A program made the position numbers and the translations under genes. Below are positions 32,765-55,662 of a stretch of 64,000 bases of DNA, one piece after another (position 1 is the stretch's first letter; each line of letters begins with the position of its first letter). A model generated the notes under the pieces. That model saw only the letters and a program-made list of their open reading frames with translations, did no database searches and was not told the origin of the DNA. Source of the stretch: Opitutales bacterium. Lineage in GTDB: Bacteria > Verrucomicrobiota > Verrucomicrobiia > Opitutales > Oceanipulchritudinaceae. The DNA is taken from the NCBI GenBank assembly GCA_020831525.1, contig JAFIGH010000003.1, positions 1-64,000 of the forward strand, in the 5' to 3' direction.

Positions 32765-33202
32765 CTATTCGAGGTGAGAAATTTCGATGTCGCCCCAATG
32801 ATCTTTCAGGTATTCCGCCACGAGTCGGCGGTGGCAATGGTGCGGCTTGTCTTCGCTGCACAGCAGGCAACCATGGTCAACGACCTCCTTTGGGACTTGC
32901 TCTTCGATTCTCCGTTCTTCCATCAGGGCAAGGAACCGCTTTTCATACTCCGACCAGTCGCCTTTGGCCTTCTTGTAGGCATCGAGGATGTCCTTGGTGG
33001 GTGCGAGTGCCGGCAGGTGCACATAGTCGATACCGCAGATTTCTTTCAGGAAAAATTCCAGGTCCTGCTTTTTGGCGAATCCTGCGAGTTGGGAAACATT
33101 GTTGAGACGCACATCGACGACGCGGCGCACGCCGGAGTGTTTTAGGAGACCGAAGAACTTCTCTGCGTCCTTTTTTGTGAATCCGATAGTGTGGAGCTTC
33201 AT
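32765..33202 (-). CDS. DUF488 family protein
   Basis: A 145-aa DUF488 protein. The start at ATG 33202 gives MKLHTIGFTKKDAEKFFGLL, the standard opening; RRVVDVRLNNVSQLAGF and CLLCSEDKPHHCHRRLVAEY (the Cys/His signature) follow. The biochemical role of the family is not established; members often sit in defence and mobile regions. It is the last gene of the SIR2-HerA run and overlaps its DUF488 paralogue by ATGA (33199-33202). Confidence 0.85.
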   Translation of the reverse strand: MKLHTIGFTKKDAEKFFGLLKHSGVRRVVDVRLNNVSQLAGFAKKQDLEFFLKEICGIDYVHLPALAPTKDILDAYKKAKGDWSEYEKRFLALMEERRIEEQVPKEVVDHGCLLCSEDKPHHCHRRLVAEYLKDHWGDIEISHLE

Positions 33203-33825
33203 GGTGATTTTTTCTTCAGGGGGAATGGTTCTTGTTCTTCTTCTACGTAGGCAACTTTGGATTCCTGCTTTTCCAGCGCTTCGGCCAGCAGGGCTTCCTT
33301 GGAGTGAAATAGGTCTTCTCTCGGGACGCCCGTTAGGTCGAACAGACGCTCCATCGCAGCCTCGTGGGGTTCCAGATGCCCGTCGGCGTGGATGTGTTGC
33401 ACCGGCATCCCGCGCTTCACAAGAGAGCGGGCGACAAGAAGGGTGCGATGGCACTCCAGTGGCTCCTTTTCGGCGCACATGAGAGCGATTCGGTAGCGTC
33501 GCGCCCCTTCCTGCACTCGATCAAGTCCGCTCTGGAAAAGGGCGGTTTGCGCCAATCGGTTGTATTGCACGCGGCCATTCTCGTAACAGGAGCGGTCATC
33601 CGTTCGGGCTCCAAGTTGCTTGCCCAGAAAGACGTAGCGAATTCCGCCCTCCTTGAGGGCGCGCTCCAAATTCTCCCGGTTGAACTGCGGATTAAAACGG
33701 CTGAAGGGCGATGAACGCACGTCAGCCACCGCTTCGATTTGATGCTGCCGAAGCAAGGCAAGGAACTCCTTGGCGCTGTGCGTCGAATGGCCGATGGTGA
33801 AGACGATCTGGTTTGCCGTGCTCAT
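33199..33825 (-). CDS. DUF488 family protein (second paralogue)
   Basis: A 208-aa DUF488 protein starting at ATG 33825. VFTIGHSTHSAKEFLALL, AVADVRSSPFSRFNPQF and ALMCAEKEPLECHRTLLVAR are the family motifs. It differs from its downstream neighbour in the loop after DVR (RSSPFSRF against RLNNVSQL), so they are two distinct subfamilies, not a recent duplicate. It extends ~50 residues beyond the neighbour with a charged tail ending PFPLKKKSP. ATGA overlaps on both sides bind it to the dual-OB gene and to DUF488 no. 2. Confidence 0.85.
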   Translation of the reverse strand: MSTANQIVFTIGHSTHSAKEFLALLRQHQIEAVADVRSSPFSRFNPQFNRENLERALKEGGIRYVFLGKQLGARTDDRSCYENGRVQYNRLAQTALFQSGLDRVQEGARRYRIALMCAEKEPLECHRTLLVARSLVKRGMPVQHIHADGHLEPHEAAMERLFDLTGVPREDLFHSKEALLAEALEKQESKVAYVEEEQEPFPLKKKSP

Positions 33826-34553
33826 GTTTGATTGGACTCCGGCTCTGTATAGGAGCGTATGTAGCTCAGAATCTTCGGAAACGTGTAGATGCCGTTTGCC
33901 TGCATCCAAAAGCCATCCTTTCCCTGCGGGCTACGGTATCTTCGGCTCAGACCAATCCGCAGAAAAATTTCCTTTTGTTTTGCAATCTCGATGTTCAAAG
34001 CTGTTAAGGCTGAGCTGTCGCGATGCCGCTGGGCGTAGTCGAAAAAGCCGAGATCTGTGATCGGGAAATATCGGTGCCGACGGCCAACCGAATCGATGAA
34101 ATGCAGCCTTATGCTGCCTGGCTTGTAACTGTTCTCCACGATTTCGATGTCGCGCGGGTCGACTTGTAACGTGATAATGGAGCGCTGAACCTTATGGTCG
34201 GGCGGAATGACTTTTTCGCCGATCGCTAGTGAAACCTCAAATCCTGTCTCTACGCTCGGGAAGCAGCTCTCCGCCAGAACGCTACGAAACTCTTCGCCGC
34301 AACAAGGGCCATGGAAGGATAGTTTCTCGTATTGACAGTCCTCGGTGTGCGGTGCCGTTCGGCTTCCGAGAGGAGTGAATTCTCCGCTCAGAATGCCGCC
34401 AGGTAGGATCCCAAGTTCCATGCACTTGGCAAACTTGAGATAGGGCATCGGCCGGATACACTCTCCGGTTTCGCGGTCGATACCTGCAGTGCAGAGATCC
34501 GGGTTGCCCGGCTTAAACCGTGTCAAGTCAGTGATGATGATCGAGCGTTTCAT
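33822..34553 (-). CDS. putative dual-OB-domain protein
   Basis: A 243-aa protein starting MKRSIIITDLTRFKPGNPDL and CTAGIDRETGECIRPMPY. This opening, and the mid-protein FHGPCCGEEF and later KVQRSIITLQVDPRDI, resemble proteins annotated as 'dual OB domain-containing', a presumed nucleic-acid-binding fold. The assignment is from memory of that pattern. Three Cys residues cluster around the centre. It starts 10 bp after the HerA stop (an in-frame ATG 9 bp upstream is possible) and overlaps the first DUF488 gene by ATGA. The role is unknown; context suggests nucleic-acid or effector recognition in the SIR2-HerA unit. Confidence 0.55.
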   Translation of the reverse strand: MKRSIIITDLTRFKPGNPDLCTAGIDRETGECIRPMPYLKFAKCMELGILPGGILSGEFTPLGSRTAPHTEDCQYEKLSFHGPCCGEEFRSVLAESCFPSVETGFEVSLAIGEKVIPPDHKVQRSIITLQVDPRDIEIVENSYKPGSIRLHFIDSVGRRHRYFPITDLGFFDYAQRHRDSSALTALNIEIAKQKEIFLRIGLSRRYRSPQGKDGFWMQANGIYTFPKILSYIRSYTEPESNQT

Positions 34554-34563
34554 GGTCTGCATT

Positions 34564-36396
34564 TCATGGTGGATCAACATCTGTTGCAGTTGTTGAGTTA
34601 CTGGAGGCGACGCACCAGCATTTTTGAAAGTCCGGGCCGTCCGACCTTGGCCGGATTGCGGGCTTTTGCATTTGGATGGTTAAGGGAATTGGGAAATCGG
34701 TTCCGATGATGGCCGCTTCGCCGGGCCGGAGATTTGGCAGGAAGGCGGAGGCGGCATGATCGATCTCGCCACAAGCGCGTTCGACAACCCCCCGGTCCGC
34801 GTCATTGGTGATACGGTGGACGATGAGGGTCCCCATCTGACTTAGAACCCCTTCGGTGATGTCGCGGGGGCGCTGGGTTGTCAGGCAGACGTTCAAACCG
34901 TATTTTCGACCCTCTTTGGCGATAAGCTCAAAAGCATCCAGTTTCGCAATGTAGTCCTCAGAACCGATGTGGCGCCCAAGGAAGTTGTGGGCTTCATCGA
35001 CTATCACGACGATAGGCTGGTCCTTAAAATCTCCATTTCGGGCAAGGTTCAAGAGATGACGGCCAATGACGTTAGCGATAATCTCGCGAGCTTTGAATTC
35101 GTAGCCAATGCCACTCATGCTAATTCTCAGAAGTCGCCTTTCGTTTACGATAAAGTCGTCAATCGTCTCTGTAACAGGTGGATTTTCAGCGGCGGAGAAA
35201 ACGCATTTGAGAGCATTTGATCTAAATGCACCATTGATTCTAGCGAGCAGTACGGAACAATACCCAATATCCTGATCGCTAACTTTGCCCCATTTTTCAA
35301 TATCATTCCAATCGGGATCGATTATGCATTCTTTGACAATTTGATGAGGCAACAACTTAACATCAAATGATTCACGCGGGTCTTGTACATGGTCAGCGAA
35401 ATGATAGAGCAGACGATTTACTGGAGTTTTTGGTTGGTGAGCCTTTATTATAAGTCCGTTCTCGATCCTGATACAGCCTTTGTCATCATTCCCGTTTTTC
35501 GTCTCAATGTTTCGGATTTCAGTAGAATCGGAGCCTTTATCATCGACCAATCTAACCAGTCTAAGACTCTCTATCGCCGCCCTCATTTTCGGCCCTTGCA
35601 CCTTACCAGAAGGCTCAAACAACGCAATGAAATCGGACTCGATAAAGCTGGTCGGCGGCAGCGAACACTCTTGGGAGTTCGTTGTATCATAAAGGGGTGA
35701 ACCCAAATGGCAGTTATCCACATGTTCGCCCTGAAAATCCCGATACTCTCCTGTTGCATCCAGCAGGATGATTTTGGATGGGTGTTTGAGGCATTCTTCA
35801 ATGATACGGGCGGTGGTCCAACTCTTACCGCCTCCGGTTGCACCGAGAATCGCACAATGTCGCCCGAAGAGCCGTTCGGGTTTCACGGAAACCCTGCTTT
35901 CACCGCTCTGATCGATTGAGCCGAGTTCGATTGTGACCGTGGCAACATCTTCTTTGCGCTCCATCAAGACGGGAAGCAGCGCAATGAAGCGATGCGGCGC
36001 GGCGTAGATGCGATCACCGAGGCGCGGATAGGCGTCGACCCCTGCCGTGACGCGGAGGTCTTCCATGGAGACACAGCCAAGAAGTTGAATGTGTCCGATT
36101 GCATCAAGCGCGGTATTTCCCACGTAGTCCGCTTTGATTGACCGTCTTTCAGGTTCGCGGAGCTTCACCTCTGCAATGCGGCCCAAAAGCAGGTTTTGCT
36201 GTCCCTCAATCAATACGAATTCGCCGACTTCTCCACGTCCGTAGCGTCCACCGGCATAGTGAGAACCGCTCGGATGCCCGGCGACGCTCAGATTCACCCC
36301 GACACTTCGAGCCGAGATTGCAGAGGCGACCCCGAGGAATAATTCGGGCCTCAATAGGCCGCGGGGAAACTCGTCTTCAGGATTCATGATACTCAC
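34564..36396 (-). CDS. herA: HerA-type hexameric ATPase/translocase
   Basis: A 610-aa HerA/FtsK-superfamily ATPase. The N-terminal ~170 residues form the HAS-barrel (VLIEGQQNLLLGRIAEVKL). The Walker A is GATGGGKSW (185-193) and the Walker B IVVIVDEAHN (462-471); CLTTQRPRDI follows as sensor I, and a C-terminal lid-like region ends the protein. SIR2-HerA pairs are an established anti-phage system in which HerA assembles with the SIR2 NADase. It overlaps the SIR2 stop by ATGA (36393-36396). GC content is clearly lower than in the carbohydrate and helicase genes, suggesting recent transfer. Confidence 0.9.
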   Translation of the reverse strand: MSIMNPEDEFPRGLLRPELFLGVASAISARSVGVNLSVAGHPSGSHYAGGRYGRGEVGEFVLIEGQQNLLLGRIAEVKLREPERRSIKADYVGNTALDAIGHIQLLGCVSMEDLRVTAGVDAYPRLGDRIYAAPHRFIALLPVLMERKEDVATVTIELGSIDQSGESRVSVKPERLFGRHCAILGATGGGKSWTTARIIEECLKHPSKIILLDATGEYRDFQGEHVDNCHLGSPLYDTTNSQECSLPPTSFIESDFIALFEPSGKVQGPKMRAAIESLRLVRLVDDKGSDSTEIRNIETKNGNDDKGCIRIENGLIIKAHQPKTPVNRLLYHFADHVQDPRESFDVKLLPHQIVKECIIDPDWNDIEKWGKVSDQDIGYCSVLLARINGAFRSNALKCVFSAAENPPVTETIDDFIVNERRLLRISMSGIGYEFKAREIIANVIGRHLLNLARNGDFKDQPIVVIVDEAHNFLGRHIGSEDYIAKLDAFELIAKEGRKYGLNVCLTTQRPRDITEGVLSQMGTLIVHRITNDADRGVVERACGEIDHAASAFLPNLRPGEAAIIGTDFPIPLTIQMQKPAIRPRSDGPDFQKCWCVASSNSTTATDVDPP

Positions 36397-37583
36397 TCCG
36401 TGTTTTGAATCCCTCTTACAGCATTCACCAATCGCTCGGCTGGGGTTAGCGATTTGAGGTCCGGAATCTGATTGGCAAAAGCGTCGAAGGTAGCGTTGAG
36501 GAACCAGACATCCTCGCCTTTGGCCCCAAATTCTAAAAGCCGGTCTTGGAAGGTATTGAGGTTGTTTTTGCCATTCTTGGACTCGAGGCTGGGGTCAACG
36601 ACGATTAGTCGGAGGTGGGGGTTCGAGCGGACAGCAGAGAGAAGCGGTTCTGATAAGTGATCGTCATTGAACCCGAAGCCCACAACCAGGACACATGTGT
36701 TGGGTTCCCGGAGTGCGGCCAGATATTGGGAAATGGATTCGAGGTAAGGTTGGCTGTAGCTCTGCTGGTATTTGCCGGTGGCGGGGTAAATCAAACAAGC
36801 TTTGTCCGGGGAGGGACTTTCAGTCTCGAAGATGTCGCCGTCATGCCTCTCCCAGTTGACTGAACCATGCAGCTTATGGAGAAGCACGACACCCTCAAGG
36901 TAGTTGCTTTGAGTTTCACCAGAGCGAGGTCTGCGAACTATGTCGTAATCAAAGTAGCGCGGATCGTAGCGGCGGGGAGCCATGAAGGAGAATCCGTCAA
37001 TCGCCACACCCCCGATAGCGCTCGTGGCCTGCTCAAAGCATAAGTCGTAGTTTGTCGTAAACAACTTCAATCGCCGATCGCGGGAACCTCGCCGCGAAAG
37101 CCGATGGAGAAACCTTTCATGCGTCTCAAGTTTGGCCGACTTGAGAAATCCGCTGCATCTTTCGAGGATGATTTCCTTTGCGCTGGTGAGAAAGGTTTCC
37201 ACATCTTGGTCTGAATGCAAAGAACGCCATGCCTCAATATGTGAGAGGAAGGCTTCGATGTTGGTATTTGTGAGATCAAAGCCAACGGTCTTCGCGGTCG
37301 CATCGGCGATTGCGGTAGCGGGCGCACCGACGATAGCGTTCCATAAGTCACCCATCGACGGACCTCTTACGCTAAGTGAACACCCTGACCCGGCAAGCAC
37401 CACGACATGTTCCATTCTTAGGGATGCACGCAACATCTGGGACAGTTCCTCGCGTGCGCGCTCGGCTAGGGCTTTAGTCTCTTTATTGGATTCGTCACCC
37501 GCAGAAAGCGAACGCCAGTCATAGCAGCGGGGTGCTCTGAAGGAAATCTCTGGGGCTTGGATCATAGGAGTGTCTTGGCTCAT
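36393..37583 (-). CDS. SIR2-domain effector of the SIR2-HerA system
   Basis: A 396-aa SIR2-like NAD-hydrolase candidate. HVVVLAGSGCSLS (59-71) is the NAD-binding glycine motif, LFTTNYDLCFEQA (174-186) the conserved NYD block, and HKLHGSVNW (236-244) has the catalytic His. CVLVVGFGFNDDHL is the late Rossmann strand. Known family members deplete NAD+ on infection, killing the cell before phage release. It is the first gene of the five-gene run and starts by ATGA overlap with a 31-codon methyltransferase-like tail just upstream. Confidence 0.9.
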   Translation of the reverse strand: MSQDTPMIQAPEISFRAPRCYDWRSLSAGDESNKETKALAERAREELSQMLRASLRMEHVVVLAGSGCSLSVRGPSMGDLWNAIVGAPATAIADATAKTVGFDLTNTNIEAFLSHIEAWRSLHSDQDVETFLTSAKEIILERCSGFLKSAKLETHERFLHRLSRRGSRDRRLKLFTTNYDLCFEQATSAIGGVAIDGFSFMAPRRYDPRYFDYDIVRRPRSGETQSNYLEGVVLLHKLHGSVNWERHDGDIFETESPSPDKACLIYPATGKYQQSYSQPYLESISQYLAALREPNTCVLVVGFGFNDDHLSEPLLSAVRSNPHLRLIVVDPSLESKNGKNNLNTFQDRLLEFGAKGEDVWFLNATFDAFANQIPDLKSLTPAERLVNAVRGIQNTE

Positions 37584-37758: not shown

Positions 37759-38532
37759 CTAATCGGAATCCTCTTCCTCTCGTTCTGGATGAGCTTCTGC
37801 AATTAACAGATCGCATATTTCATCTGTGTAAATATCTAGTCCAATAGGGATAACATCAAAAGCCTGAGTCACCTTCCAAAAAGTGTCGAGATTCTCATCG
37901 ATTGACTTATCAGGCGAGAAAAGCTTCTTCTGCAAATGATCGCGGAACATGTTCAGAGATTCACTTTCGGTTTTGAAAGAGTAAGTTGGTTCTTCCTCGA
38001 ACGGATCGATACATGGGTCCTCAATCTTTCTCGTAACCTCAAGATGGCAGCCATAAGCGTCCTGCATAAAGCAAATGGACACGATCTCGGGTAGAACCGG
38101 ATATTTCCAATTGTTGATGATGTCGTGCAGAATATCCTTGCGTTCGACTTCTTTATGCCGGGTTTGAAAAATGACTGGTAGCCGGGATTGAGCCCATTCG
38201 ATTATCTCCTCCAATTCAGAAAATGCTTTCGCCGCGTCTTGCGGATACACCTGGTCCCCGTGTGCAGCTAAATTTGCAAGGTCTTTGACGCTTTTCATGC
38301 GGCTCAAGATTCTCGGTTCAATATGCCGGGCAAACTCCTTGTCCGCGATTATCTGACCAAGCATCTTTGCCTCTGTGGGGGATCCGAGGTAATACGCCGC
38401 GATGATCCGAAGTAGCTTTTCGAGAACAACTCTGATTTTGGAGAGCGATCCACCGGGGTCACTGTCGATCAGGTTTTCCGCTTGCTTGAAAGCTTTTGGG
38501 TCAATTGGACTTGTGTCTCTTGCTTCAGACAT
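37759..38532 (-). CDS. DUF4145-like (HEPN-superfamily) protein
   Basis: A 257-aa soluble protein. The N-terminal half reads like DUF4145: a helical domain with LSKIRVVLEKLLRIIAAYYL, a middle with EPRILSRMKSVKDLANLAAH and a helix EELIEWAQSRLP-like segment. DUF4145 is grouped with HEPN folds and is frequent in restriction and defence operons. The catalytic RxxxxH of RNase HEPNs is not seen, so it is more likely a structural or nucleic-acid-binding subunit. The C-terminal ~100 residues are acidic and unassigned. Lower-GC sequence. It lies between the two SIR2 genes. Confidence 0.55.
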   Translation of the reverse strand: MSEARDTSPIDPKAFKQAENLIDSDPGGSLSKIRVVLEKLLRIIAAYYLGSPTEAKMLGQIIADKEFARHIEPRILSRMKSVKDLANLAAHGDQVYPQDAAKAFSELEEIIEWAQSRLPVIFQTRHKEVERKDILHDIINNWKYPVLPEIVSICFMQDAYGCHLEVTRKIEDPCIDPFEEEPTYSFKTESESLNMFRDHLQKKLFSPDKSIDENLDTFWKVTQAFDVIPIGLDIYTDEICDLLIAEAHPEREEEDSD

Positions 38533-38876: not shown

Positions 38877-39836
38877 TCATAGCCAATCTTTCAGGTATCT
38901 GTCTATCGGATTTTCCGGATGCATAAAGGCGTTCACTTGGCGTCCTTCCGGCGAAAAGATAGATTGGGCATTTGAGAGAGCCTTGGAGCTTATATCCACT
39001 ACATCCACAGTAGCCGTTTTGCTCAAATTTCTCAGGAAAGCTTTCATTATCCAATCAGATGCGGGAAAGGAATAGCCCATGACGACGAGCCGGTCTGCTT
39101 CTTTCAGCTTTGTCAAAGCCTGCTCCCATTGGATTTGGATGTAAGCATTGCCATAGTAGGTGTCTTTCACGCTCAAAGGGGGAACAATATAGGGGGCGTA
39201 GCCCTTATTGAGTAACTGACGCCATCTCTCTTCATCGCAGGTTTCAATCTTCTCAAGATTGGTTCCTCCAAGTGAATCCTTACTCCATAAATTTATGGAA
39301 CCATGGAGTTTCCAAATCTTGAAGCTTTCTATGTCCGAATCGGACTGTGGGTAAAAATCAAATTCGGTTGCTCGCTTTCCGTTCATTCGGAATAGGTAAT
39401 TCGCCGCAACGCCTTCGACGGAGGTGTCATAGTTGAGAGAAAAAATCGTAATCCGATGTTCATGACAATAATCGATTAGCTTGAAAAGGTAATGCCAAGG
39501 AACACTGTCCAGAGCGCAATAAGAGAAGCTTTCGATCACCTCCATTGTTGGGGTAATGAGCCCAACTTGGATGGCCCTTAGAACCTCAAAATAGGCCTCT
39601 TTGCGTGACAACTGCTCTCGTTCGTCTACCCATGGGCAAACGGAAGCCAAGGAAGACAACCACACTTCGAAGTCATCGCGAAACGTTAGATCACAGTACT
39701 TTTCTGCGGCTGAATTAGGCCGAAACTTCAAGCGCTCCGGCAGCTCAGCCATAAGCGGAAAACCGAGATCAATCCATTTCGAGAAGCCCGCCCCCAGCAA
39801 AAACACCGTAGCGGAGTCTGTAAAACCGGCGGTCAT
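38877..39836 (-). CDS. second SIR2-like protein
   Basis: A 319-aa SIR2-superfamily protein, unrelated in detail to the one at 36393. TVFLLGAGFSKWIDLGFP (10-27) is the NAD-binding motif, IFSLNYDTSVEG (131-142) the NYD block, and WKLHGSINLW (175-184) has the catalytic His; LVVMGYSFPASDWIM is the late strand, which is typical of SIR2_2 effectors. It is coupled to the methyltransferase by ATGA overlap (39833-39836), so it looks like an effector added to the methyltransferase operon. Lower GC than the methyltransferase. Confidence 0.82.
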   Translation of the reverse strand: MTAGFTDSATVFLLGAGFSKWIDLGFPLMAELPERLKFRPNSAAEKYCDLTFRDDFEVWLSSLASVCPWVDEREQLSRKEAYFEVLRAIQVGLITPTMEVIESFSYCALDSVPWHYLFKLIDYCHEHRITIFSLNYDTSVEGVAANYLFRMNGKRATEFDFYPQSDSDIESFKIWKLHGSINLWSKDSLGGTNLEKIETCDEERWRQLLNKGYAPYIVPPLSVKDTYYGNAYIQIQWEQALTKLKEADRLVVMGYSFPASDWIMKAFLRNLSKTATVDVVDISSKALSNAQSIFSPEGRQVNAFMHPENPIDRYLKDWL

Positions 39837-42800
39837 ACTTGCCCCTCCCGTTTAATCACCCCCAGCAACTCTGGACTATCGAAGGTGAGGCGGAGGAGGC
39901 GGTTGCGGATGGGGTGGCTCGCGGCGTTGGCGGCGTTGTGGAAGTGGGTCAAGAAGTCGATTTGACGGTTGGGTGAAGTGTCGGCGTCGAAGCCGTTTAG
40001 GAGCGGGCGGACGTGGTCGATGACGGCGAGGTTCCTCTCGGCCATATGGTCGGGGAAGTAGCATTCCATCACGCAGGCGTCGATCAGGTCTTCGAGAAAC
40101 GAGTTGTCGTTGTCTGCAAGATGGGAGCGGATCCACCCGAGTTTAAACAGCAGGTCTTCCGCTGCTCTAGAAGCTGATGGAACGGGAATCTGAGAGACTT
40201 GTTCTTTGAACCAACGCGTCACACCCATTCCACTTGTCTGTGCTGTATGCTTCATGAAAAACCCTGAGACCGAGGAATTCAGGAGGCAGACAAGGGCATA
40301 CGCGCGCCATTCATGCGGGGGAAGAAGGAAATAGGCCGTGTTGAGCATGTAAACACCAGCGGGACAAACCGCGAAACGCGGTGCATCCGTCATTTCAATC
40401 CAAACGACGCGGTCAAGCTCGAAATCATCATAAAACGAACAGGCGCGAAGGTTCCACCAGCTCTCGCCTTGGGCTCCCCTTGAGATGAACCCAGAACCAA
40501 AGGATTTCAAATGTTGAGCGAGAAGCGGGAAGTCACGGGGTAGATTAACCCCGTTCCGGGAAAGGATAAGGAACTGGGTGACGGGCGCTAATTGATACCG
40601 GTCTACATCCCTCCCTCTGATCACGGGCTTTAGTATGGTTGCGTTCCTCGGATCAGCTCGAACAAATTTCTCTTTTTGTTGTGGATTCAACAGAAAGGCG
40701 GAGTTACTTCCTGTTGCAAGCCCAAGGCGGATTTTAGCCCTACGCTGAACCAAGGATCTGTTTCCTGACTCAATTTTTCCCAAAATTTCCAGTTCAGATG
40801 GCGTGGATAGGGACCATGCAGTTCGATTTAAAGACACATCTGGACATTTGTAGGAGTTCTTCCTGACGTGGTCTTCGAATGAAGGTTCAGTCCAAGGAGA
40901 TCTACAGGCCAAGTGTGAGCCTGACCGGTTCACGCTTGAGCATCGTGAAAACGCCAAAATCACGACATTTACAATCGCGCTGGAAAACACCTGAGATCTA
41001 TCAATGCTTATAATGCTTTGAACCTTGGCATTGCTCGGGAGCAGCGTTCGCAGGGGGGCACCATAGGCAGCACGCAAAAATGAGTTGGATGTTATCAGGC
41101 AGGAAATCCCTGCGTCACAAAGGAGCGTCAGGGACCTCTCGATAAAATAGCAATACAAGTCAGCGAATGGTTCCCAGCATCGAAAACCTTTAATTGAAGC
41201 CTTCGTCTTGGCTGAAAGCTTGTCGTGCGAAATGTACGGCGGATTGCCGATGACAACGTCGAAGCAGCGCTGACCGAACATCCACTCCGGATCAAAGAAG
41301 GACGCGCTGGCGTTTTGGTCGTAGGGATCCCAACTCGCCAGCAGTCGGGCGGTCCGGCTGTCCCACCCGTTCTTTTCCAATTCCTCGGCGATGGCCTCGC
41401 GCAGTTCTTTGTCGCGCTCGCGCTTGGCGTTTTTTGTGCGCGGGGTCTTGGCGGCGAAGAGTTCGTGGCGGACCTGTTTCAACTCGCGCTGCAGCTTGCT
41501 CACATCGGCCAGCTCAAACAGCTCAACTTGAGTGGATGGCTTTTCGATGCGGATGAGGGTGTCGGCCGTGACGAACTTTGTCTCGAGATTCGGGAGGGGG
41601 CGGACGCCAAAGTTTTCGCGTTGGCGGTCGACGGTCTGATCGACGACGAGGGATATGAAGAACCGGAGTTTGGAGACCTGCGTGGCAATGGACTGGATGT
41701 CGACGCCGTAGAGGCAGTTTTCGATGAGATAGAGTTTGCGTCCGTAGCCCAGCTCGTTGTTGGAAAAGGCTTCCTCGATGTCGCGTTTCTGCGCTTCGGC
41801 GTCGGAGATGGCGCGCTCGCGAAAGGTGGTGTCGTCGATGTCCTGCGCGGTCTCGATGAGCTTGTCGACTTTGGCAAGCTGGCGTTGTTTCCAGAGTTCG
41901 TCGCGGGGATCGAGCTTGGCGAGGATGTAAACGAGCTTTTGCAGGGCACCCATGGGGAAGGCACCGGACCCGCAGGCGGGGTCGAGGATCTTGCAGGAGT
42001 CGATGGCGCGGATGAGGACTTCGACCTCGGCTGGGGTAAAGGCGTGTTCGCGCTCGGTGTATGCGAAGAGGATGTCGAGTCCGGCTTTGGCATCGTTTTC
42101 GCGCATCCCGGCATCCTTGACGAGGGCGGCGGAAAGATGGGCTTTGAGTGACTCGTCGACCATGTAGTCCACGATGGTGCGCGGGGTGTAGAAGGACCCG
42201 GTCTGCTTGCGGGCAGTGATCTTGGTTTCGTCGTTGTAGGAGGCGAGTAGGTTTTCGAAGACCTGGCCGAGGAGTTCGGGGTCGAGGGCAATTTCCTGCT
42301 CGATGGGGGTGTTTTCGACGATGGTGAATTTGTAGCGGTTGAGGATGTGGATGAGGCCACGGACCTTTTCCGCTTTGCGCTTCGGATCGCCGAACTCTTT
42401 GCTCAGGTTTTCGACGCGTTCGCCCCCGAAAAAAAGAAAGTCGGGAACGACGAGAGGGTTGTCCTTGCGGTCGGAAAATCCATCCTCGTAGATCGTGACC
42501 TTGCCGCCCTGGGGGCCGACCTTGGTGGGGTGCGGGTAGTCCAGGCAGTCGAAGAGGCCGCCGTTAAGAAAGGGGGTGGTCGCTTCGACGGCGTCGATGA
42601 AGCGCCGGGGTTCTTTGAGTTCCGCCTCGTAGCGCAGCAGGTTGGTGGTGTTGTGGTGCTGGCCCTGTTTGCGAAAGGCGCGCTTGCCCTGAACCTGGTT
42701 GAGGCTGGCAAAAAAGAGGTTTTGCAGGATGGCTTTGTAGTAGCGGGTCTCTTTGGATTCGGAGTCGAAGCCGTCGAGAAACTCTTCCGCAAGCGCATGG

Positions 42801-43762
42801 GGGTCAAAGAAGGCATCCGGCACCAATCGACGCTCTTTGATGAACCAGACAAAGAGGATGCGGGTGAGGAGGCGGATCAGGTTTTTGGCTTCGTGCTCGC
42901 GGACTTTTTCGCGGTCTTTGAAGAGGAAATACTTGTCGGAGGATTCGTCGAGCAAGGGGAAGTGGCAGTGGCGCATGGCCCAGAAATACCAGTCGGACAA
43001 CTCGCGGTAGAAACGCTTGTTGAGGAGTTCGACGTTGAAGATTTCCTCCCAGGCGGCGTGGAGGGCGTCGAAGTTGTTGATGGGCTCGCGCTTGGGGTGG
43101 ACGAGGTTGTCAAAGGCGAAGGAGTCGAGAATATCGAGGTGGCCACGGTGGGGGGCGGCGAGGGAGATATCGCGAATGATGGTGGCTTTTTCGAGAACGT
43201 CTTTGTGTGCCTCGCGCTTGTTGCGGCGGCGGTTGATGACGGCGATGGATAACAGTGGCGCGGACATTCTTGTCTGCGCAGATTTGGAGCGAGGCGTGTC
43301 GGACGCACAGACAGGAATGTCTGTGCCACGATGCTTGATCAGCACCATGACCGGCATGGGAAAGACGCGGTTGAGCTGGCGGGCGATGGCGGCGAGTTTG
43401 CCGCGGGCGTAATGGTCTCCGGTCAGCTCGATGGCAAAAAAGAGGTAGGAGCGCAGAAGACCGGGCTTGATGTCCTCTTCTTTGAAGAGGTTTGCCTCAC
43501 GGGACAATTCACTGTCGGTGAGTTGGAAGAGAAGGTCGGCGGATTTCCAATCGTCGACGAGAGCCTTGCTGCGGTCGATGCCGGCGGAACCGGCGTTGGA
43601 TTCGATGAACTCAAGAAAGGCGGCCGGACTGGAGTCGCCGGTATGGAGGGTGCGGTCCGACCGGTAGCCGAGGGTGCCGAGGAAATCGAGGGCTGCCTCG
43701 CGCAGGGGCTTGGCGGTGAAGGCGTTGAGAGCGGCGCGGATGTTTTCGCGGAGGTCGGGCAT
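39833..43762 (-). CDS. Eco57I-like DNA adenine methyltransferase (large)
   Basis: A 1309-aa DNA methyltransferase. I prefer ATG 43762 (MPDLRENIRAALNAF); a TTG 66 bp upstream is also in frame. The N-terminal ~500 residues resemble type IIG/DrmMI/PglX-like accessory regions; YLDPACGSGAFPMG-like SAM motif I (DPACGSGAF) is near residue 592 and VVIGNPPYISH (motif IV, N6-adenine) near 840. The C-terminal ~360 residues are the target-recognition part. Features: residues ~145-169 are encoded by an in-frame 75-bp REP palindrome (43255-43329), and the segment 40137-41225 is visibly AT-richer than both flanks. No nuclease motif is seen. It is 111 bp downstream of DUF3800 and overlaps the SIR2 gene. A DISARM class-1-like (drmD/drmMI) relationship is possible, but drmA, drmB and drmC are absent. 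Confidence 0.85.
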   Translation of the reverse strand: MPDLRENIRAALNAFTAKPLREAALDFLGTLGYRSDRTLHTGDSSPAAFLEFIESNAGSAGIDRSKALVDDWKSADLLFQLTDSELSREANLFKEEDIKPGLLRSYLFFAIELTGDHYARGKLAAIARQLNRVFPMPVMVLIKHRGTDIPVCASDTPRSKSAQTRMSAPLLSIAVINRRRNKREAHKDVLEKATIIRDISLAAPHRGHLDILDSFAFDNLVHPKREPINNFDALHAAWEEIFNVELLNKRFYRELSDWYFWAMRHCHFPLLDESSDKYFLFKDREKVREHEAKNLIRLLTRILFVWFIKERRLVPDAFFDPHALAEEFLDGFDSESKETRYYKAILQNLFFASLNQVQGKRAFRKQGQHHNTTNLLRYEAELKEPRRFIDAVEATTPFLNGGLFDCLDYPHPTKVGPQGGKVTIYEDGFSDRKDNPLVVPDFLFFGGERVENLSKEFGDPKRKAEKVRGLIHILNRYKFTIVENTPIEQEIALDPELLGQVFENLLASYNDETKITARKQTGSFYTPRTIVDYMVDESLKAHLSAALVKDAGMRENDAKAGLDILFAYTEREHAFTPAEVEVLIRAIDSCKILDPACGSGAFPMGALQKLVYILAKLDPRDELWKQRQLAKVDKLIETAQDIDDTTFRERAISDAEAQKRDIEEAFSNNELGYGRKLYLIENCLYGVDIQSIATQVSKLRFFISLVVDQTVDRQRENFGVRPLPNLETKFVTADTLIRIEKPSTQVELFELADVSKLQRELKQVRHELFAAKTPRTKNAKRERDKELREAIAEELEKNGWDSRTARLLASWDPYDQNASASFFDPEWMFGQRCFDVVIGNPPYISHDKLSAKTKASIKGFRCWEPFADLYCYFIERSLTLLCDAGISCLITSNSFLRAAYGAPLRTLLPSNAKVQSIISIDRSQVFSSAIVNVVILAFSRCSSVNRSGSHLACRSPWTEPSFEDHVRKNSYKCPDVSLNRTAWSLSTPSELEILGKIESGNRSLVQRRAKIRLGLATGSNSAFLLNPQQKEKFVRADPRNATILKPVIRGRDVDRYQLAPVTQFLILSRNGVNLPRDFPLLAQHLKSFGSGFISRGAQGESWWNLRACSFYDDFELDRVVWIEMTDAPRFAVCPAGVYMLNTAYFLLPPHEWRAYALVCLLNSSVSGFFMKHTAQTSGMGVTRWFKEQVSQIPVPSASRAAEDLLFKLGWIRSHLADNDNSFLEDLIDACVMECYFPDHMAERNLAVIDHVRPLLNGFDADTSPNRQIDFLTHFHNAANAASHPIRNRLLRLTFDSPELLGVIKREGQV
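43255..43329. repeat. REP palindrome inserted in frame within the methyltransferase gene
   Basis: A 75-bp element (25 codons) with arms GTGGCGCGGACATTCTTGTC and CACAGACAGGAATGTCTGTG flanking a 26-bp loop; same family as 10438-10542. It replaces the expected VLIKH...LLSIAVINRR continuity with RGTDIPVCASDTPRSKSAQT plus RMSAP. The reading frame stays open. Confidence 0.85.
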
Positions 43763-43873
43763 AAAGTTTGGTGCTTTGGGCTTGCTGTTTGTGGAGGATT
43801 GAGGGAGGCTTACTGTTCCGGTGGACAAAAATCGGCTGCATGCCGTGTGGTTCGCGCTTCGAGCGAGGGGACC

Positions 43874-44713
43874 CTATATCCACCGGTTTTTTATTTTTCC
43901 GACATCGGGCGGGGCTGATTTTCGGGTAAAAAAGGTTCCGTAGCGTTTTCCAAGTGGGTCGTCGACATCGTGAATGAGGGAGACTTTTGACCAAATCGCC
44001 CGGAGAAAGCGATCTTCACCCATTTCGTAACATCGTTGGAGAGCCCAAAGCGCATAGTCGGTGATCTGCAGGCAGGGGGCCTCCCGAGGGTAGGCGGGGC
44101 AAATCTCGACATGCGTTTCATTCAGATCTTTGGAGTGTTCCGCCTCAAAACGCTTGCGTGCCTTGGCCAATTCGGACCTCAGGGCTTCCGTCCGGTCCCG
44201 GGCCCCGCGGCGGGCAAAGGTGATCCGGTAGGCCGGCTCCTTGTGGAGGCGTTGCTTGAAGAGCATTCGCGTGGTCAGGTCATACAACTCGTTCGGCTTA
44301 TAGCGGTAACTCGAGTCCATCAGATTGCGGCTGCGCACATACTTGAGAACTTCGCTCATTTGTTTGATGACGGCAAAGAACCGAAAATCAAGGGTGGTCA
44401 AAACTTCAAAAACTTTGGCACGGATTTCATTGTGATCGTCCTTCGCGTGAAAGCACTGCGCGGTTTTCTTCGCCTCCGGGGACATCGACGGAATTCCGGA
44501 ATACAGTGGATTGAGCAGCAGACGCTCCCTCAGTGATCTCAAGGAGTCTGCGGCATGGGCGTCGTTGACGCAACGAATCATGCCCAGAATGAAGAATTTC
44601 CTGGCGCCGTCCTCTCTTATGCGAACGCGGCCCTTGTGCCCGAAGAGGACACCATCCCCCGCTTCATCGACATAGTAGGTTGCCGGAACCACGGTCTCCT
44701 GTTTCGCCGTCAT
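43874..44713 (-). CDS. DUF3800-domain protein
   Basis: A 279-aa protein starting MTAKQETVVPATYYVDEAGD. YYVDEAGD is the DUF3800 opening, and the acidic residues fit an RNase H-like fold. Later blocks, FFAVIKQMSEVLKY, YDLTTRMLFKQRL and the C-terminal CLQITDYALWALQRCYEMGE, agree with the family. DUF3800 proteins are common next to restriction and defence genes, but their activity is not established. It overlaps the helicase stop by ATGA (44710-44713). No toxin or signal motif. Confidence 0.8.
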   Translation of the reverse strand: MTAKQETVVPATYYVDEAGDGVLFGHKGRVRIREDGARKFFILGMIRCVNDAHAADSLRSLRERLLLNPLYSGIPSMSPEAKKTAQCFHAKDDHNEIRAKVFEVLTTLDFRFFAVIKQMSEVLKYVRSRNLMDSSYRYKPNELYDLTTRMLFKQRLHKEPAYRITFARRGARDRTEALRSELAKARKRFEAEHSKDLNETHVEICPAYPREAPCLQITDYALWALQRCYEMGEDRFLRAIWSKVSLIHDVDDPLGKRYGTFFTRKSAPPDVGKIKNRWI

Positions 44714-47700
44714 TCTGTTGTGTTTTCCATGATCACCAGCCACGTGAGCAGCTCATATTCAAGCTCCAGTTCGCCGGGGGTTTCGGCGGCGGTGGGGAGT
44801 TTGCCGTCGCGGCCGGCGAGGAGGGAGGCGGCGGAGCGGCGCTGGAAGGTGCGGGCGATGGAGGCGAGAGCGAGCCGGGCGAGGCGGTTGTAGCGTTCCA
44901 TGCCGGCGGCATCGCGGGTGGCGGCGTCGAAGAGGTCGCAGAGGTGCTCGTCGGCGCCGGTTTTGCCCGCCGCGAGGTCGCGGAAAAGGCGGAGGCACTG
45001 CTTGGGCTGGGCGAAGGTGTAGCGGACGGCTCCGTCGTCGTGCAGGTAGACGAGGAAGTGTCCGCCGAGCGGGTTGACGGTGGCGCCGGGGCGCCCGGCG
45101 GACTCAAGGGCGCGCAGGTGGCGCAGGCAAAAGATGACGCCCGGCCTCGCGGCGGGCACGGCGGGATCGGCCGGGACGACGGCGTGGAGGCCGGGGGGCG
45201 CGTTTTCGAGGAGGCTTTTGTTGGCTTCGAGGTAGCGGAGGAGGTCGAGCCGGAAATCCTCGAGGGAGAAGTCGGCGAGGGAGAGCCCGTCGCCCTCGAA
45301 GTCCTCGAGGTCGATGATTTCCTCGCGCAGGCGCCGGAGTTGCCGGTTGCGGTAGTGCAGGTCGTTTTCGATGAGATCGGCGATCTGCTCGGTGTTGAGG
45401 AGGTTGTCCTCGCCGGTGGCGGTGAGGTCGACCAGCGCCATGCGCGCCTCGACCCGGCGCTTGACGTCGAGGTAGGCGTCGAGGTCGTCGGTCGGCCAGA
45501 AATTGACGAGGGAGATGACGGGATTGCGCGAGCCGATGCGGTCGATGCGGCCGAAGCGCTGGATGATGCGGACGGGGTTCCAGTGGATGTCGTAATTGAT
45601 GAGGAGCGCGCAGTCCTGGAGGTTCTGGCCCTCGGAGATGCAGTCGGTCGCGACGAGGACATCGATCTCTTCGTCCTGCGGAAACTCCGGGCGGCGGGCG
45701 CGCTCCTTGGCGAGCGGGGCGAAATTGGTGAGGATGCTGTGGAAGTCGGCCTTGCCGAGGGTCGTCTCGCAACGGCCGCTCCCCGCCACGACGGCGAGGT
45801 GGGGCAGGGCGGTCCCGCCTTCGGCATCGCCGCGCAGCCATGCGCGGAGGTGCTTGTAGAGGTAGCGGGCGGTATCGGCGAAGGCGGTGAAAACAAGGAT
45901 CTTGGGGTTGGGGCGACCGTCCGCCGTTGCCGGAGGATCGGCCCGGCGCTCCGCGATGATCTCCTTGAGCCGGGCGAGCTTCGCGTCGCGCTCCGGCGTC
46001 ACTTCATTGGCGCGTTCGAGGAGCACGAGCAGCTTGCCATGGTCGTCGCGGATCTTCGCGATCCAGCGTTCCAGATTCAGGTGCGCGAGGTTGACCTTCA
46101 ATTTTCCACCGATGAGGAGGTCCTCGGCGGCGATGCCCTCGGCCTCGAGGTCGTCTTCCTCCATGAGATCGAAATCGAGGTCGGGGTTGTCGCGCACGCG
46201 CTTCTGGAAGAGTTCGATCTTCTCTTCGAGGGCGCGGATTTTCGCGACGGTGTTGCCGAGCGTGATGCGGAAGGAATCGACGGAGCTTTCGAGGCGCTTG
46301 AGGAAGTTGACCTTCATCATGGCGATGAGGATCCGCTCGCGGCCTTCCTGCGTGAAGTTGCCGATATGCCGCTCGTAGCCGAGGCGGACCTCCGGGGGCA
46401 GGTCGTCCCGGAGTTCTGCCGTGGGATGGTAAAGGCTGAGGGTGAGCTTGGATATCTGGCGGTCCAGCTCTTCGAAACTGAAGAAGCGGTCCGACGTATC
46501 GATAAACGGATACTCGGCCCGCGGCCGCTCGCGGCGCGGAAAGCCGCCGAGGCGCTCCATCTCGTCCGCATAATAGCGCTTGATCTGGCTGCGCGAGCGG
46601 GCAATGCTCAGGCTGTCGAGGAGGCGGAAGAAGTCGCTCCCGAGGCTTGTGATGAGTTCGCGGGCGGACCTTCCGTCCGCGGGCTGCTTCGACCACGCGG
46701 TGAATTGCGCCTGCGCCTTGCGGCAGGTATCCGCGATGCTCGGAATGGAGAGGGCCTTGTGCAGCGCGGCGTCGGCGCCTGGGTCTTTGGTCACGTCGCC
46801 GCCGACGATAAACGAAAGCTGGTTGCGCAGGTCGGCGATTTGGTTGTTCACCGGCGTGGCGGAGAGCAGGAGAATTTTGCTGCGTGGACCGCTCCGGATG
46901 ATGTCGTCGATAAGACGCTCGTAGCGGGAGCGCGGGCGGGTGCCGTCGGGCCGGGGGCGGCCGGGAGCGTTGTTGCGGAAGTTGTGGGATTCGTCGATGA
47001 CAACAAGGTCGTAGATGTCCCAGTGGATGTCTTCGAGCCGCAGGTCGCCGGCCATGCCGCCGTCGCGGCTCAGGTCGGTGTGCGAGAGCACGTCGTAGCG
47101 AAAGCGGTCTTCCATGAGCGGATTGAGCCGGCTGTTGGAGCGGTAGACCGTCCAGTTCTCGCGAAGCTTCTTCGGGCAGAGCACGAGAACCCGCTCGTTG
47201 CGGTTTTCAAAATACTTGATGACGGCGAGAGCTTGGAAGGTTTTCCCGAGACCCACACTGTCGGCGAGGATGCAGCCGTTGAACTGGAGAAGCTTGTTAA
47301 CCGCGCCTTTGACGCCGTCTTTCTGGAAGCCGAAGAGCATCTTCCAGACGGCGGAATCGAGAAGCGTGGTCTGGCGGATTTGGTCGTCGGCCTTCTTCGT
47401 TCCCTCGAGGTCGTCGCGGAACAAGTGATAGAGGGTGAGGAAATAGATGAATTCCGGCGCGTTGTTGGCGTAGTGCCGGGCGAGGTAGCGCAGAACTTCG
47501 TCCTTCACGTCTTCGACGAGCCCCGGATTGTCCCACAGCGACTGGAACCAGTCCTTCAGGGCGCGCCGGTCGCGGTTGTCGTTGACGACGAGGTTCAGCT
47601 CGATGTTGTTGCGCGAGGCGGCCATCCCGAGGCCGCGGAGAGTGAAATTGGAACTGCCCACGAGAGCGTTTTCCACCGGGCCGTCCGCGATATGGTAGAG

Positions 47701-48099
47701 CTTTCCGTGCAGGAGACCGGCTTCGCGGATGGAGCGGATTTCCACTTTTTCCCGGATCCACCGCGCGCATGCCTTCGCTACGGCGCGTTGCTGCATTTGG
47801 TTGGTGACCCGCAGGCCGTCGTCGGTCAGCGCGAAGAGTTTTTTTTCCGCGCGGTCGGGATCGAGGCTCTGCACGAACCGCGGCTCGCCGAAGAGGAACC
47901 GCAGGTTGCCGATACCGTCCAGCATCTCCCGCAAAGCCCCGTAGGCTTGGATGGTGAAGTAAGCCGAGACAAACGACAACCCGCTGTCCGGGGCGATGTG
48001 TTCACGCAAGAAATCCGCCGCCGTGCCGTGCTCCGGGGTGTTGTCCCGGATGCCGGACTCCTTTGCCGCCGCGAGTGTCGTCTGCCGTGCCTTTGCCAT
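44710..48099 (-). CDS. PLD-nuclease/SNF2-type helicase
   Basis: A 1129-aa fusion, started at ATG 48099 (MAKARQTT). Residues ~25-165 are a phospholipase-D-like nuclease domain with one HKD motif, HGKLYHIADG (131-140) with GSSNFT (148-153). The helicase follows: Walker A DSVGLGKTFQ (280-289), DESHN (369-373), LLLSATPVNN and, in the second RecA lobe, VATDCISEGQNLQDC and QRFGRIDRIGS. The combination suits ATP-dependent DNA translocation with cleavage, as in restriction or RM-like defence. DUF3800 and the methyltransferase follow on the same strand. Uniform high GC, unlike the SIR2/HerA genes. Confidence 0.88.
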   Translation of the reverse strand: MAKARQTTLAAAKESGIRDNTPEHGTAADFLREHIAPDSGLSFVSAYFTIQAYGALREMLDGIGNLRFLFGEPRFVQSLDPDRAEKKLFALTDDGLRVTNQMQQRAVAKACARWIREKVEIRSIREAGLLHGKLYHIADGPVENALVGSSNFTLRGLGMAASRNNIELNLVVNDNRDRRALKDWFQSLWDNPGLVEDVKDEVLRYLARHYANNAPEFIYFLTLYHLFRDDLEGTKKADDQIRQTTLLDSAVWKMLFGFQKDGVKGAVNKLLQFNGCILADSVGLGKTFQALAVIKYFENRNERVLVLCPKKLRENWTVYRSNSRLNPLMEDRFRYDVLSHTDLSRDGGMAGDLRLEDIHWDIYDLVVIDESHNFRNNAPGRPRPDGTRPRSRYERLIDDIIRSGPRSKILLLSATPVNNQIADLRNQLSFIVGGDVTKDPGADAALHKALSIPSIADTCRKAQAQFTAWSKQPADGRSARELITSLGSDFFRLLDSLSIARSRSQIKRYYADEMERLGGFPRRERPRAEYPFIDTSDRFFSFEELDRQISKLTLSLYHPTAELRDDLPPEVRLGYERHIGNFTQEGRERILIAMMKVNFLKRLESSVDSFRITLGNTVAKIRALEEKIELFQKRVRDNPDLDFDLMEEDDLEAEGIAAEDLLIGGKLKVNLAHLNLERWIAKIRDDHGKLLVLLERANEVTPERDAKLARLKEIIAERRADPPATADGRPNPKILVFTAFADTARYLYKHLRAWLRGDAEGGTALPHLAVVAGSGRCETTLGKADFHSILTNFAPLAKERARRPEFPQDEEIDVLVATDCISEGQNLQDCALLINYDIHWNPVRIIQRFGRIDRIGSRNPVISLVNFWPTDDLDAYLDVKRRVEARMALVDLTATGEDNLLNTEQIADLIENDLHYRNRQLRRLREEIIDLEDFEGDGLSLADFSLEDFRLDLLRYLEANKSLLENAPPGLHAVVPADPAVPAARPGVIFCLRHLRALESAGRPGATVNPLGGHFLVYLHDDGAVRYTFAQPKQCLRLFRDLAAGKTGADEHLCDLFDAATRDAAGMERYNRLARLALASIARTFQRRSAASLLAGRDGKLPTAAETPGELELEYELLTWLVIMENTTE

Positions 48100-48220
48100 C
48101 TGCACCAAACCTTGGCGACTGCGGCGGAGATTGTGAACCGCAAAATTTCGGCGCATGAAGACGGTCCATTCGCGGGCGGATGCGTGGTTGGCACCCGGCG
48201 CGCAGGCGGATGCGCGTGGG

Positions 48221-55626: not shown

Positions 55627-55662
55627 AGCACTCACCAGAGAACCACTCACAAAGAAGACATC

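What the first reader, a model, noticed from the sequence alone, without database searches (positions are those of the whole stretch)
32765..37583. Five-gene SIR2-HerA-dualOB-DUF488-DUF488 unit joined by ATGA overlaps
SIR2/HerA, dual-OB/DUF488 and DUF488/DUF488 junctions are 4-bp ATGA overlaps, and HerA/dual-OB is 10 bp apart. SIR2-HerA is a known NAD-depleting anti-phage pair, but three further coupled proteins would make it an extended, possibly undescribed variant. The putative dual-OB protein could recognise nucleic acid, and the DUF488 pair could be additional effectors or regulators.
Basis: partly seen in the sequence, partly recalled or inferred. Interest (0 to 1): 0.85.

Follow-up and report, generated by a model that had tools for sequence, protein, structure and literature searches.

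The report
Two phage-defence modules sitting back-to-back
Five bacterial genes that look like one new anti-virus system are better explained as a known two-gene cell-suicide defence followed, ten bases later, by a separate and widespread three-gene DNA-handling module whose parts are swapped between genomes and whose job is untested.

Summary
The five genes are real and at the stated coordinates; one detail differs: the SIR2/HerA overlap is GTGA, not ATGA. SIR2-HerA is an ordinary SIR2-HerA (Nezha) pair with catalytic motifs present. The other three genes are best read as a separate module: DuOB-DUF488-DUF488 recurs across phyla, and PADLOC already lists it as phage-defence candidate PDC-M45. 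Of at least 555 genome relatives of the last gene I examined the best 80; 66 carry the whole trio. HerA or SIR2 was found in 0 of 145 trio/DUF488 loci, and DuOB/DUF488 in 0 of 20 HerA loci, both with in-database controls. So the five-gene order was seen once, in the window. The trio is itself modular: its OB subunit changed type at least 5 times on the DUF488-C tree, its third partner can be DUF488-B or mSLOG-DUF4326, and it sits tightly behind other defence genes, including between HmaB and HmaC. Best reading: two separable modules in one operon-like array within a defence island. Cooperation is possible but not supported by anything sampled.

The parts
36393..37583 (-). SIR2-family protein, predicted NADase of the SIR2-HerA (Nezha/GAO_19) pair, 396 aa
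   Evidence: PADLOC SIR2 PDLC04075 E 2.1e-87; NCBIfam SIR2_antiphage E 6.8e-38, below its curated cut-off; three solved SIR2 chains, E 6e-20 to 1e-17; TTNYD Asn179 and KLHGS His239 present
34564..36396 (-). HerA-like ATPase/DNA translocase, 610 aa
   Evidence: PADLOC HerA PDLC04103 E 8.7e-161; solved HerA chains; Walker A GATGGGKS at 185 and VIVDEAH at 464
33822..34553 (-). Dual-OB (DuOB) protein, divergent subtype, 243 aa; predicted nucleic-acid recognition subunit of the trio
   Evidence: Pfam DuOB E 5.9e-5, sub-threshold; no PADLOC hit at E<=0.01; AlphaFold2 model pLDDT 92.9 with weak OB-fold matches over both halves; 41-47% identical to DuOB of L036, L037, L111, L171, L173
33199..33825 (-). 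DUF488 protein B (PDC-M45B), 208 aa
   Evidence: Pfam DUF488 E 1.1e-27; PADLOC PDC-M45B E 1.4e-93
32765..33202 (-). DUF488 protein C (PDC-M45C), 145 aa, the most conserved member of the trio
   Evidence: Pfam DUF488 E 6e-27; PADLOC PDC-M45C E 9.8e-77; Cys115, Ser116, Glu117, Cys123, His124, Arg125 and Arg126 invariant in 48 sequences
37759..38532 (-). DUF4145 protein upstream of SIR2, same strand; not assigned to either module
   Evidence: Pfam DUF4145 E 4.3e-6; 175-bp gap to SIR2
38877..39836 (-). Second SIR2-like protein, joined by a 4-bp overlap to the methylase upstream; not assigned to either module
   Evidence: Pfam SIR2_2 E 2.3e-5; SLNYD and KLHGS motifs
39833..43828 (-). Type IIG-like restriction/methylation protein, 1331 aa (TTG start uncertain)
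   Evidence: Pfam Eco57I E 5e-32; PADLOC REase_MTase_IIG E 3.8e-105
43874..44743 (-). DUF3800 protein
   Evidence: Pfam DUF3800 E 3e-7
44710..48156 (-). PLD-SNF2 helicase, first gene of the co-directional array
   Evidence: Pfam PLDc_2, SNF2-rel_dom, Helicase_C; NCBIfam DISARM DrmD E 1.8e-40, below its curated cut-off

Best explanation
Two separately mobile modules lie end to end in a defence island and are probably transcribed together. Module 1 is a canonical SIR2-HerA (Nezha) pair: HerA hexamers act on DNA and activate SIR2 to hydrolyse NAD, stopping the infected cell; this is inferred from published homologues. Module 2 is a PDC-M45-like trio. The dual-OB protein most likely binds single-stranded DNA or a DNA end and presents it to the two DUF488 enzymes, which have a phosphatase/diphthine-synthase-like fold with invariant Cys and CHR residues and are predicted to process terminal phosphates. 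The trio works on its own or as an add-on to whichever defence operon it lands behind. Shown: the array, the motifs, and the independent occurrence of both modules elsewhere. Inferred: co-transcription, DNA binding, enzyme activity, and anti-phage function of the trio.
For: Each module occurs without the other: 66 of 80 examined genome loci carry DuOB-DUF488B-DUF488C; 0 of 145 trio/DUF488 loci have a HerA or SIR2 match at E<=0.01, with the window slice found as control in the same database (repeating); 0 of 20 HerA loci have DuOB/DUF488 (again with a control; 18 of the 20 hold at least 4.9 kb downstream of HerA and 18 of 20 carry a full-length SIR2). A 37%-identical HerA finds the window HerA at E 1e-108. 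PADLOC models PDC-M45B/C hit the two DUF488 proteins, and PDC-M45A is DuOB in four other loci. SIR2-HerA motifs are present. The closest near-full-length HerA that I examined (67%, L149) has no trio. Models. SIR2 plus herA kept resistance in a published homologue (PMC11559045 passages).
Against: The 10-bp HerA/DuOB gap and the similar GC of the five genes (0.517-0.574, against 0.461-0.469 for the next two genes upstream) would also fit one co-acquired unit. In other genomes the trio is tightly nested inside other defence operons (three Hma loci), which suggests it can cooperate with its neighbour. Only 80 of at least 555 genome relatives and 7 of 640 plasmid records with a HerA match were examined; ten of those 640 have a best piece of 60-80% identity and I did not look at which. 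Some loci are near-copies (for example L033/L096, L154/L155). The fold matches are weak (Z 4-8).
Confidence: 0.66

Rival explanations
1. The trio is an exchangeable accessory ('tail') module that cooperates with whichever DNA-acting defence operon it is appended to: Hma, type III methylase, GmrSD or ATPase-type genes, and here SIR2-HerA. It would process DNA ends or modified DNA produced by the upstream machinery.
For: A same-strand ORF of at least 120 aa ends within -73 to +60 bp of the DuOB ORF start in 18 of 66 complete trios (mechanical ORFs). Seven of those 18 were identified as defence-type genes: HmaB in L055, L061, L062, L067, type III methyltransferase in L111, an AAA_15/AriA-like ATPase in L053, GmrSD_N in L076. 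In L061 the trio lies 7 bp after HmaB and 12 bp before HmaC; relatives of that HmaC follow the trio in L055 and L067.
Against: Of the other 11, five gave no PADLOC hit at E<=1e-5 (L068, L074, L100, L121, L124), two gave only weak pAgo-model hits (L056, L088) and four were not scanned (L058, L059, L078, L085). The other 48 complete trios have no such tight upstream ORF by this rule. Defence genes cluster anyway, so adjacency is weak evidence.
Confidence: 0.2
2. A true five-gene SIR2-HerA variant in which the DUF488 pair handles NAD-derived products (ADP-ribose, or ADP-ribose put on DNA by the SIR2 protein), with DuOB bringing the DNA.
For: Operon-type spacing across all five genes. The DUF4326 family, which replaces DUF488-B in some cassettes, was proposed to process terminal phosphates of ADP-ribose, and sirtuins of the HerA systems were proposed to ADP-ribosylate DNA (PMC9503650, passages read). 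The same passages mention HerA variants with other partners (KTSC protein, endoDNase), so partner exchange around HerA is in print.
Against: No second instance in any sample. In the samples the trio occurs without SIR2 or HerA, and HerA without the trio.
Confidence: 0.08
3. The trio belongs to the upstream PLD-SNF2 helicase / type IIG methylase operon, and SIR2-HerA is a cargo inserted between them.
For: In L053 and L076 (both Verrucomicrobia) relatives of the window's PLD-helicase and IIG methylase precede the trio, with different genes in between; in L085 a methylase relative alone lies upstream. The window DUF488 proteins score best with L053/L054 (C 75-76%, B 73-77% identity).
Against: Only 2 of 80 loci show this order upstream; in L095 the helicase and methylase relatives lie downstream of the trio. 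Gaps of 175 bp and 344 bp lie between SIR2 and the second SIR2 gene in the window.
Confidence: 0.1
4. The trio is a DNA-damage or repair module rather than anti-phage.
For: In two plasmids a lone DUF488-C relative (62% and 59% identical) sits next to uvrB or uvrA. The OB fold and predicted phosphate-processing chemistry fit repair.
Against: The module recurs in IMG/VR viral contigs and behind restriction-type genes, and PADLOC lists it as a defence candidate. None of this is a functional test.
Confidence: 0.12

Closest known systems
SIR2-HerA (Nezha, GAO_19) anti-phage system
   Same: Gene order SIR2 then HerA, best PADLOC models, catalytic motifs; a published pair suffices for resistance (PMC11559045 passages)
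   Different: Here a DuOB-DUF488-DUF488 trio follows 10 bp downstream; no such neighbour in the 20 HerA loci examined
PADLOC phage-defence candidate PDC-M45 (M45A DuOB, M45B DUF488, M45C DUF488)
   Same: Gene order and overlaps; M45B and M45C models hit at E 1.4e-93 and 9.8e-77
   Different: The window DuOB is a divergent subtype that no PADLOC model hits at E<=0.01, shared with L036, L037, L041, L111, L171, L173, L186, L187, L189; I found no report of the candidate's activity in the library searched
RapZ-C/DUF488/DUF4326 conflict systems of Burroughs and Aravind 2023 (NAR Genom Bioinform lqad029; recalled, not held)
   Same: DUF488, DuOB, mSLOG and DUF4326 families co-occur in operons seen here; that these Pfam families stem from that work is recalled
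   Different: Could not be compared; whether it mentions SIR2-HerA neighbours is unknown to me
Hma system (HmaB methylase, HmaC ATPase in PADLOC; HmaA helicase recalled)
   Same: Hosts the same trio between HmaB and HmaC in L055, L061, L067
   Different: No Hma model is among the families listed for the eight window proteins scanned (25 of 74 families shown for the methylase, 25 of 26 for SIR2; the helicase and DUF3800 were not scanned with PADLOC)

Membership tests
SIR2-HerA (Nezha) | SIR2-like protein with the NADase Asn/His pair | tested here: met
   TTNYD Asn179 and KLHGS His239, both motifs aligned with solved SIR2 chains; published homologue N168/H227 (PMC11559045 passage)
SIR2-HerA (Nezha) | HerA ATPase with Walker A and B | tested here: met
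   GATGGGKS at 185 and VIVDEAH at 464; PADLOC HerA E 8.7e-161
SIR2-HerA (Nezha) | The two genes adjacent, SIR2 first | tested here: met
   GTGA overlap at 36393-36396
SIR2-HerA (Nezha) | 12:6 complex and NAD hydrolysis on infection | not testable with these tools
   Known for homologues only (PMC12198126 and PMC11559045 passages)
PDC-M45 | M45B DUF488 protein | tested here: met
   E 1.4e-93
PDC-M45 | M45C DUF488 protein | tested here: met
   E 9.8e-77
PDC-M45 | M45A DuOB protein by PADLOC model | tested here: not met
   Window DuOB hits no PADLOC model at E<=0.01. It holds the same gene position and is a sub-threshold Pfam DuOB match, so it is filed as PDC-M45-like, not as a member
PDC-M45 | PADLOC's own rule for which genes make a complete system | not tested
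   Only the protein models were available; the system rule was not seen
PDC-M45 | Anti-phage activity | not testable with these tools
   Candidate status only
Rhodanese-phosphatase superfamily (DUF488) | Fold match to phosphatase/diphthine-synthase-like enzymes | tested here: inconclusive
   VIA best rows tied at Z 7-8: CbiL 8xj3_B Z 8.0 rmsd 3.5 over 119; laforin 4r30_A Z 7.6 rmsd 3.5 over 115; archaeal PTP 2i6i Z 7.1 rmsd 3.4 over 108; no Foldseek match at E<=0.001
Dual-OB nucleic-acid binders | Two OB folds | tested here: inconclusive
   Residues 1-93 match telomere end-binding protein 1ph2_A Z 5.1 rmsd 2.4 over 81; residues 1-227 match RPA70 1jmc_A Z 4.3 rmsd 4.5 over 169; one Foldseek match at E<=0.001, Teb1, with TM-score 0.25

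The most novel reading that the evidence does not exclude
The five genes form one working system: SIR2-HerA hydrolyses NAD or ADP-ribosylates DNA while it is pumped through HerA, and the DuOB-DUF488-DUF488 trio, fed with the DNA ends or ADP-ribose products, finishes or reverses that reaction. This would be the SIR2-HerA instance of a general trick in which one swappable OB-plus-DUF488 end-processing module is plugged into many defence operons (Hma, type IIG/PLD-helicase, type III methylase, SIR2-HerA).
Probability: 0.09. Interest if true: 0.78.

Novelty: new variant of a known kind. Interest (0 to 1): 0.4.

Why it matters
As a conserved five-gene system it does not stand on the present evidence. 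But it exposes a widespread trio, with no functional test that I could find, that behaves like a plug-in: its OB subunit has been exchanged several times over a highly conserved DUF488 core, its third partner is interchangeable, and it is nested inside Hma and behind other DNA-modifying defence genes. If it acts on DNA ends or NAD-derived phosphates, it would link methylation-type and NAD-type defences. A simple complementation experiment could tell whether it is a free-standing defence or a helper.

Tried and rejected
Rejected: the five-gene unit as a conserved variant. The window's DuOB alone found no relatives in genome contigs or plasmids, so the DUF488-C alignment was used instead. HerA gave nothing in viral contigs by exact peptide patterns (that method finds close relatives only). 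No DUF488-C match in the phage collection at E<=1e-5, although 39 IMG/VR contigs hold one. DUF488 profiles found no relative among solved structures by sequence and the DuOB profile one chance-level row, E 0.44. DUF488-C has no Foldseek match at E<=0.001 in the PDB; that absence does not show a new fold.

A 31-codon ORF just before SIR2 (37580-37675) whose stop overlaps the SIR2 start looked to me, from memory, like the C-terminal tail of an N6-methylase. It found no match in plasmids or, by pattern, in held loci other than copies of the window; left as a lead.

Phylogeny: the DUF488-C tree has few columns, a bootstrap that had not settled and several long rows, and puts the window in no starred set, so no donor can be named. 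The E. coli search hit only a stretch of 347 bases within HerA.

Literature: searches for DUF488 with SIR2/HerA, DUF488/DUOB, DUF488 with conflict terms, RapZ/DUF4326, PDC-M45, DUF488 alone and DUF4326/DUF488 with phage terms listed no paper that I recognised as being on this trio in the held library; I judged by titles and abstract starts and read passages of three of the listed papers. The likely key paper (Burroughs and Aravind 2023) is not held and is recalled only, so no claim is made that the trio is unpublished.

Full report
Observation. The five ORFs are on the minus strand at the stated place. Exact junctions: SIR2 stop and HerA start overlap as GTGA (HerA starts with GTG), HerA to DuOB is 10 bp, and DuOB/DUF488-B and DUF488-B/DUF488-C are ATGA overlaps. 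GC is 0.517-0.574 in the five genes, 0.461 and 0.469 in the next two upstream genes and 0.614 in the window. Same-strand genes continue upstream to 48156: DUF4145, a second SIR2, a type IIG-like methylase, DUF3800 and a PLD-SNF2 helicase.

Identities. SIR2 and HerA match PADLOC models (E 2.1e-87 and 8.7e-161) and chains of solved SIR2-like and HerA proteins. The Asn and His of SIR2 and the Walker motifs of HerA are present. The two DUF488 proteins match PDC-M45B (1.4e-93) and PDC-M45C (9.8e-77) of PADLOC. The DuOB protein has a sub-threshold Pfam match and no PADLOC match at E<=0.01. In L025, L026, L027 and L033 the gene before the DUF488 pair is PDC-M45A by PADLOC and DuOB by Pfam, so the PDC-M45 models describe DuOB-DUF488-DUF488, and the window carries a divergent DuOB subtype. 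PADLOC's rule for a complete system was not seen.

Recurrence of the trio. By phmmer and small profiles, 66 of the 80 carry DuOB, DUF488-B and DUF488-C, 7 carry B and C, and 7 only C, some at contig ends. Their titles span Verrucomicrobiota, Planctomycetota, Acidobacteriota, Pseudomonadota, Nitrospirota, Chloroflexota, Actinomycetota, Cyanobacteriota and others. In 387 genomes of the window's phylum, the window's own included, 20 have a PDC-M45B match at E<=1e-30.

Does SIR2-HerA go with it? HerA and SIR2 of the window were searched by tblastn (E<=0.01) against 145 trio or DUF488 loci (26 from plasmids and the phylum, some with a lone DUF488 and one in the window's own genome; 80 genome; 39 viral): no hit, repeated with a window slice as control, which was found. 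The best chance-level rows were E 0.098 (HerA, L047) and 0.22 (SIR2, L082). The loci include near-copies. Of the 119 genome and viral loci, 93 hold at least 3 kb before the module. Conversely, I took the 13 HerA relatives listed in other genomes (2 of 387; 2 of 17; 3 of 398; 1 of 396; 5 of 392; cut-offs 1e-40 or 1e-60) and 7 plasmid loci (of 640 records with a match). None of the 20 has DuOB or DUF488 by profile at E<=1e-3, at E<=1, or by tblastn at E<=0.01 with a control that was found. 18 of 20 hold at least 4.9 kb downstream of HerA, one 1.4 kb and one only 0.18 kb. 18 of 20 carry a full-length SIR2; L202 has a 114-aa fragment and L149 a 15.7-bit trace. L149 is the closest near-full-length HerA examined (67%). 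A 37%-identical HerA finds the window's HerA at E 1e-108, so the search was sensitive enough. The five-gene order was therefore seen once.

What the trio is attached to elsewhere. In 18 of 66 complete trios a same-strand ORF of at least 120 aa ends within -73 to +60 bp of the DuOB ORF (mechanical ORFs, starts uncertain). Identified in seven: HmaB in four (L055, L061, L062, L067), a type III methyltransferase with a UvrD-like helicase after the trio (L111), an AAA_15/AriA-like ATPase (L053) and a GmrSD N-terminal domain protein (L076). In L061 the trio sits 7 bp after HmaB and 12 bp before HmaC, and relatives of that HmaC follow the trio in L055 and L067. Of the other eleven, five gave no PADLOC hit, two (L056, L088) only weak pAgo-model hits, and four were not scanned. 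A protein family including L056 and L088 recurs in five loci (L056, L059, L065, L078, L088). Relatives of the window's own helicase and methylase precede the trio in L053 and L076, follow it in L095, and a methylase relative alone lies before it in L085.

The trio is modular. In viral contigs 28 of 39 loci have no separate DUF488-B ORF (in L187 one ORF scores with both DUF488 profiles), and 27 of these 28 have a DuOB match. In the five such loci I tested (four viral, one plasmid) the gene after DUF488-C is an mSLOG-DUF4326 protein. On the DUF488-C tree (127 rows, few columns, bootstrap not settled) the two DuOB subtypes need 7 changes, at least 5 forced by starred branches; 1 of 500 shuffles is as low, so the label is clustered but not single-origin. 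The window's DUF488-B and -C are 77% and 75% identical to L053, whose DuOB gives no BLAST match to the window's, while L111, L171 and L173 share a 46-47% identical DuOB with less similar DUF488-C (67%, 59%, 57%). So the OB subunit is exchanged over a conserved enzyme, which fits a recognition role; that last step is inference.

How it probably works. DuOB models with pLDDT 92.9 and resembles OB-fold ssDNA and telomere-end binders (Z 4-5). DUF488-C models with pLDDT 92; its best matches, tied at Z 7-8, are tetrapyrrole/diphthine-type methylases and dual-specificity phosphatases. These are weak values. Cys115, Cys123, His124, Arg125 and Arg126 are invariant in 48 sequences. DUF4326, the alternative third partner, was placed in the rhodanese-phosphatase superfamily and proposed to process terminal phosphates of ADP-ribose (PMC9503650, passages read). 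A prediction of DNA-end processing by DUF488-type enzymes is recalled from Burroughs and Aravind 2023, which is not held. I therefore favour an end- or phosphate-processing enzyme pair guided by an OB protein. For SIR2-HerA, NAD depletion and sufficiency of the two genes are published for a homologue (PMC11559045, passages read).

Verdict. Two separable modules abut in one operon-like array. The SIR2-HerA half is canonical. The trio is PDC-M45-like with a divergent DuOB; because the PADLOC M45A model was tested and not met, it is filed as a variant, not a member. Cooperation with SIR2-HerA cannot be excluded, since the trio does nest inside other defence operons, but nothing sampled supports it.

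Noticed in passing
window 51413-62187, plus strand: A prophage with a tape measure protein, a portal plus maturation protease, and a DNA transposition protein by PHROGs, so probably Mu-like (label recalled); the large ORF 58058-60622 had no PHROG hit.
   Followed up: partly
window 37580-37675, minus strand: A 31-codon ORF whose stop overlaps the SIR2 start codon; its sequence recalls the C-terminal tail of N6-adenine methylases (recalled, no match found). It may be a recombination scar.
   Followed up: partly
window 38877-48156, minus strand: A second SIR2-like gene joined by a 4-bp overlap to a type IIG-like methylase, itself behind DUF3800 and a PLD-SNF2 helicase: another possible defence operon with a SIR2 component.
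   Followed up: no
L055, L061, L067: The DuOB-DUF488-DUF488 trio sits between HmaB and HmaC (HmaC scanned in L061, by relatedness in L055 and L067) in records titled Betaproteobacteria, Nitrospira and Acidobacteria; perhaps a more interesting association than the window's.
   Followed up: partly
L191 and L192 (plasmids): Lone DUF488-C relatives (62% and 59% identical) lie next to uvrB (Aeromonas caviae) or uvrA (Kosakonia radicincitans), hinting at a DNA-repair link.
   Followed up: no
L149 5821-8517: The closest near-full-length HerA examined (67% identical) is in one open frame with an upstream helicase-like stretch, with only a 15.7-bit trace of SIR2: a natural fusion after SIR2 loss or an assembly artefact.
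   Followed up: no
L187 7308-8441: One viral-contig ORF scores with both DUF488 profiles (168.7 and 187.6 bits), possibly a DUF488-B/C fusion, followed by a DuOB gene.
   Followed up: no
L033 and L096: A contig of a same-order genome (G257) and a record titled Akkermansia muciniphila give identical DUF488-C, so the window's genome probably belongs to the order of Akkermansia.
   Followed up: no
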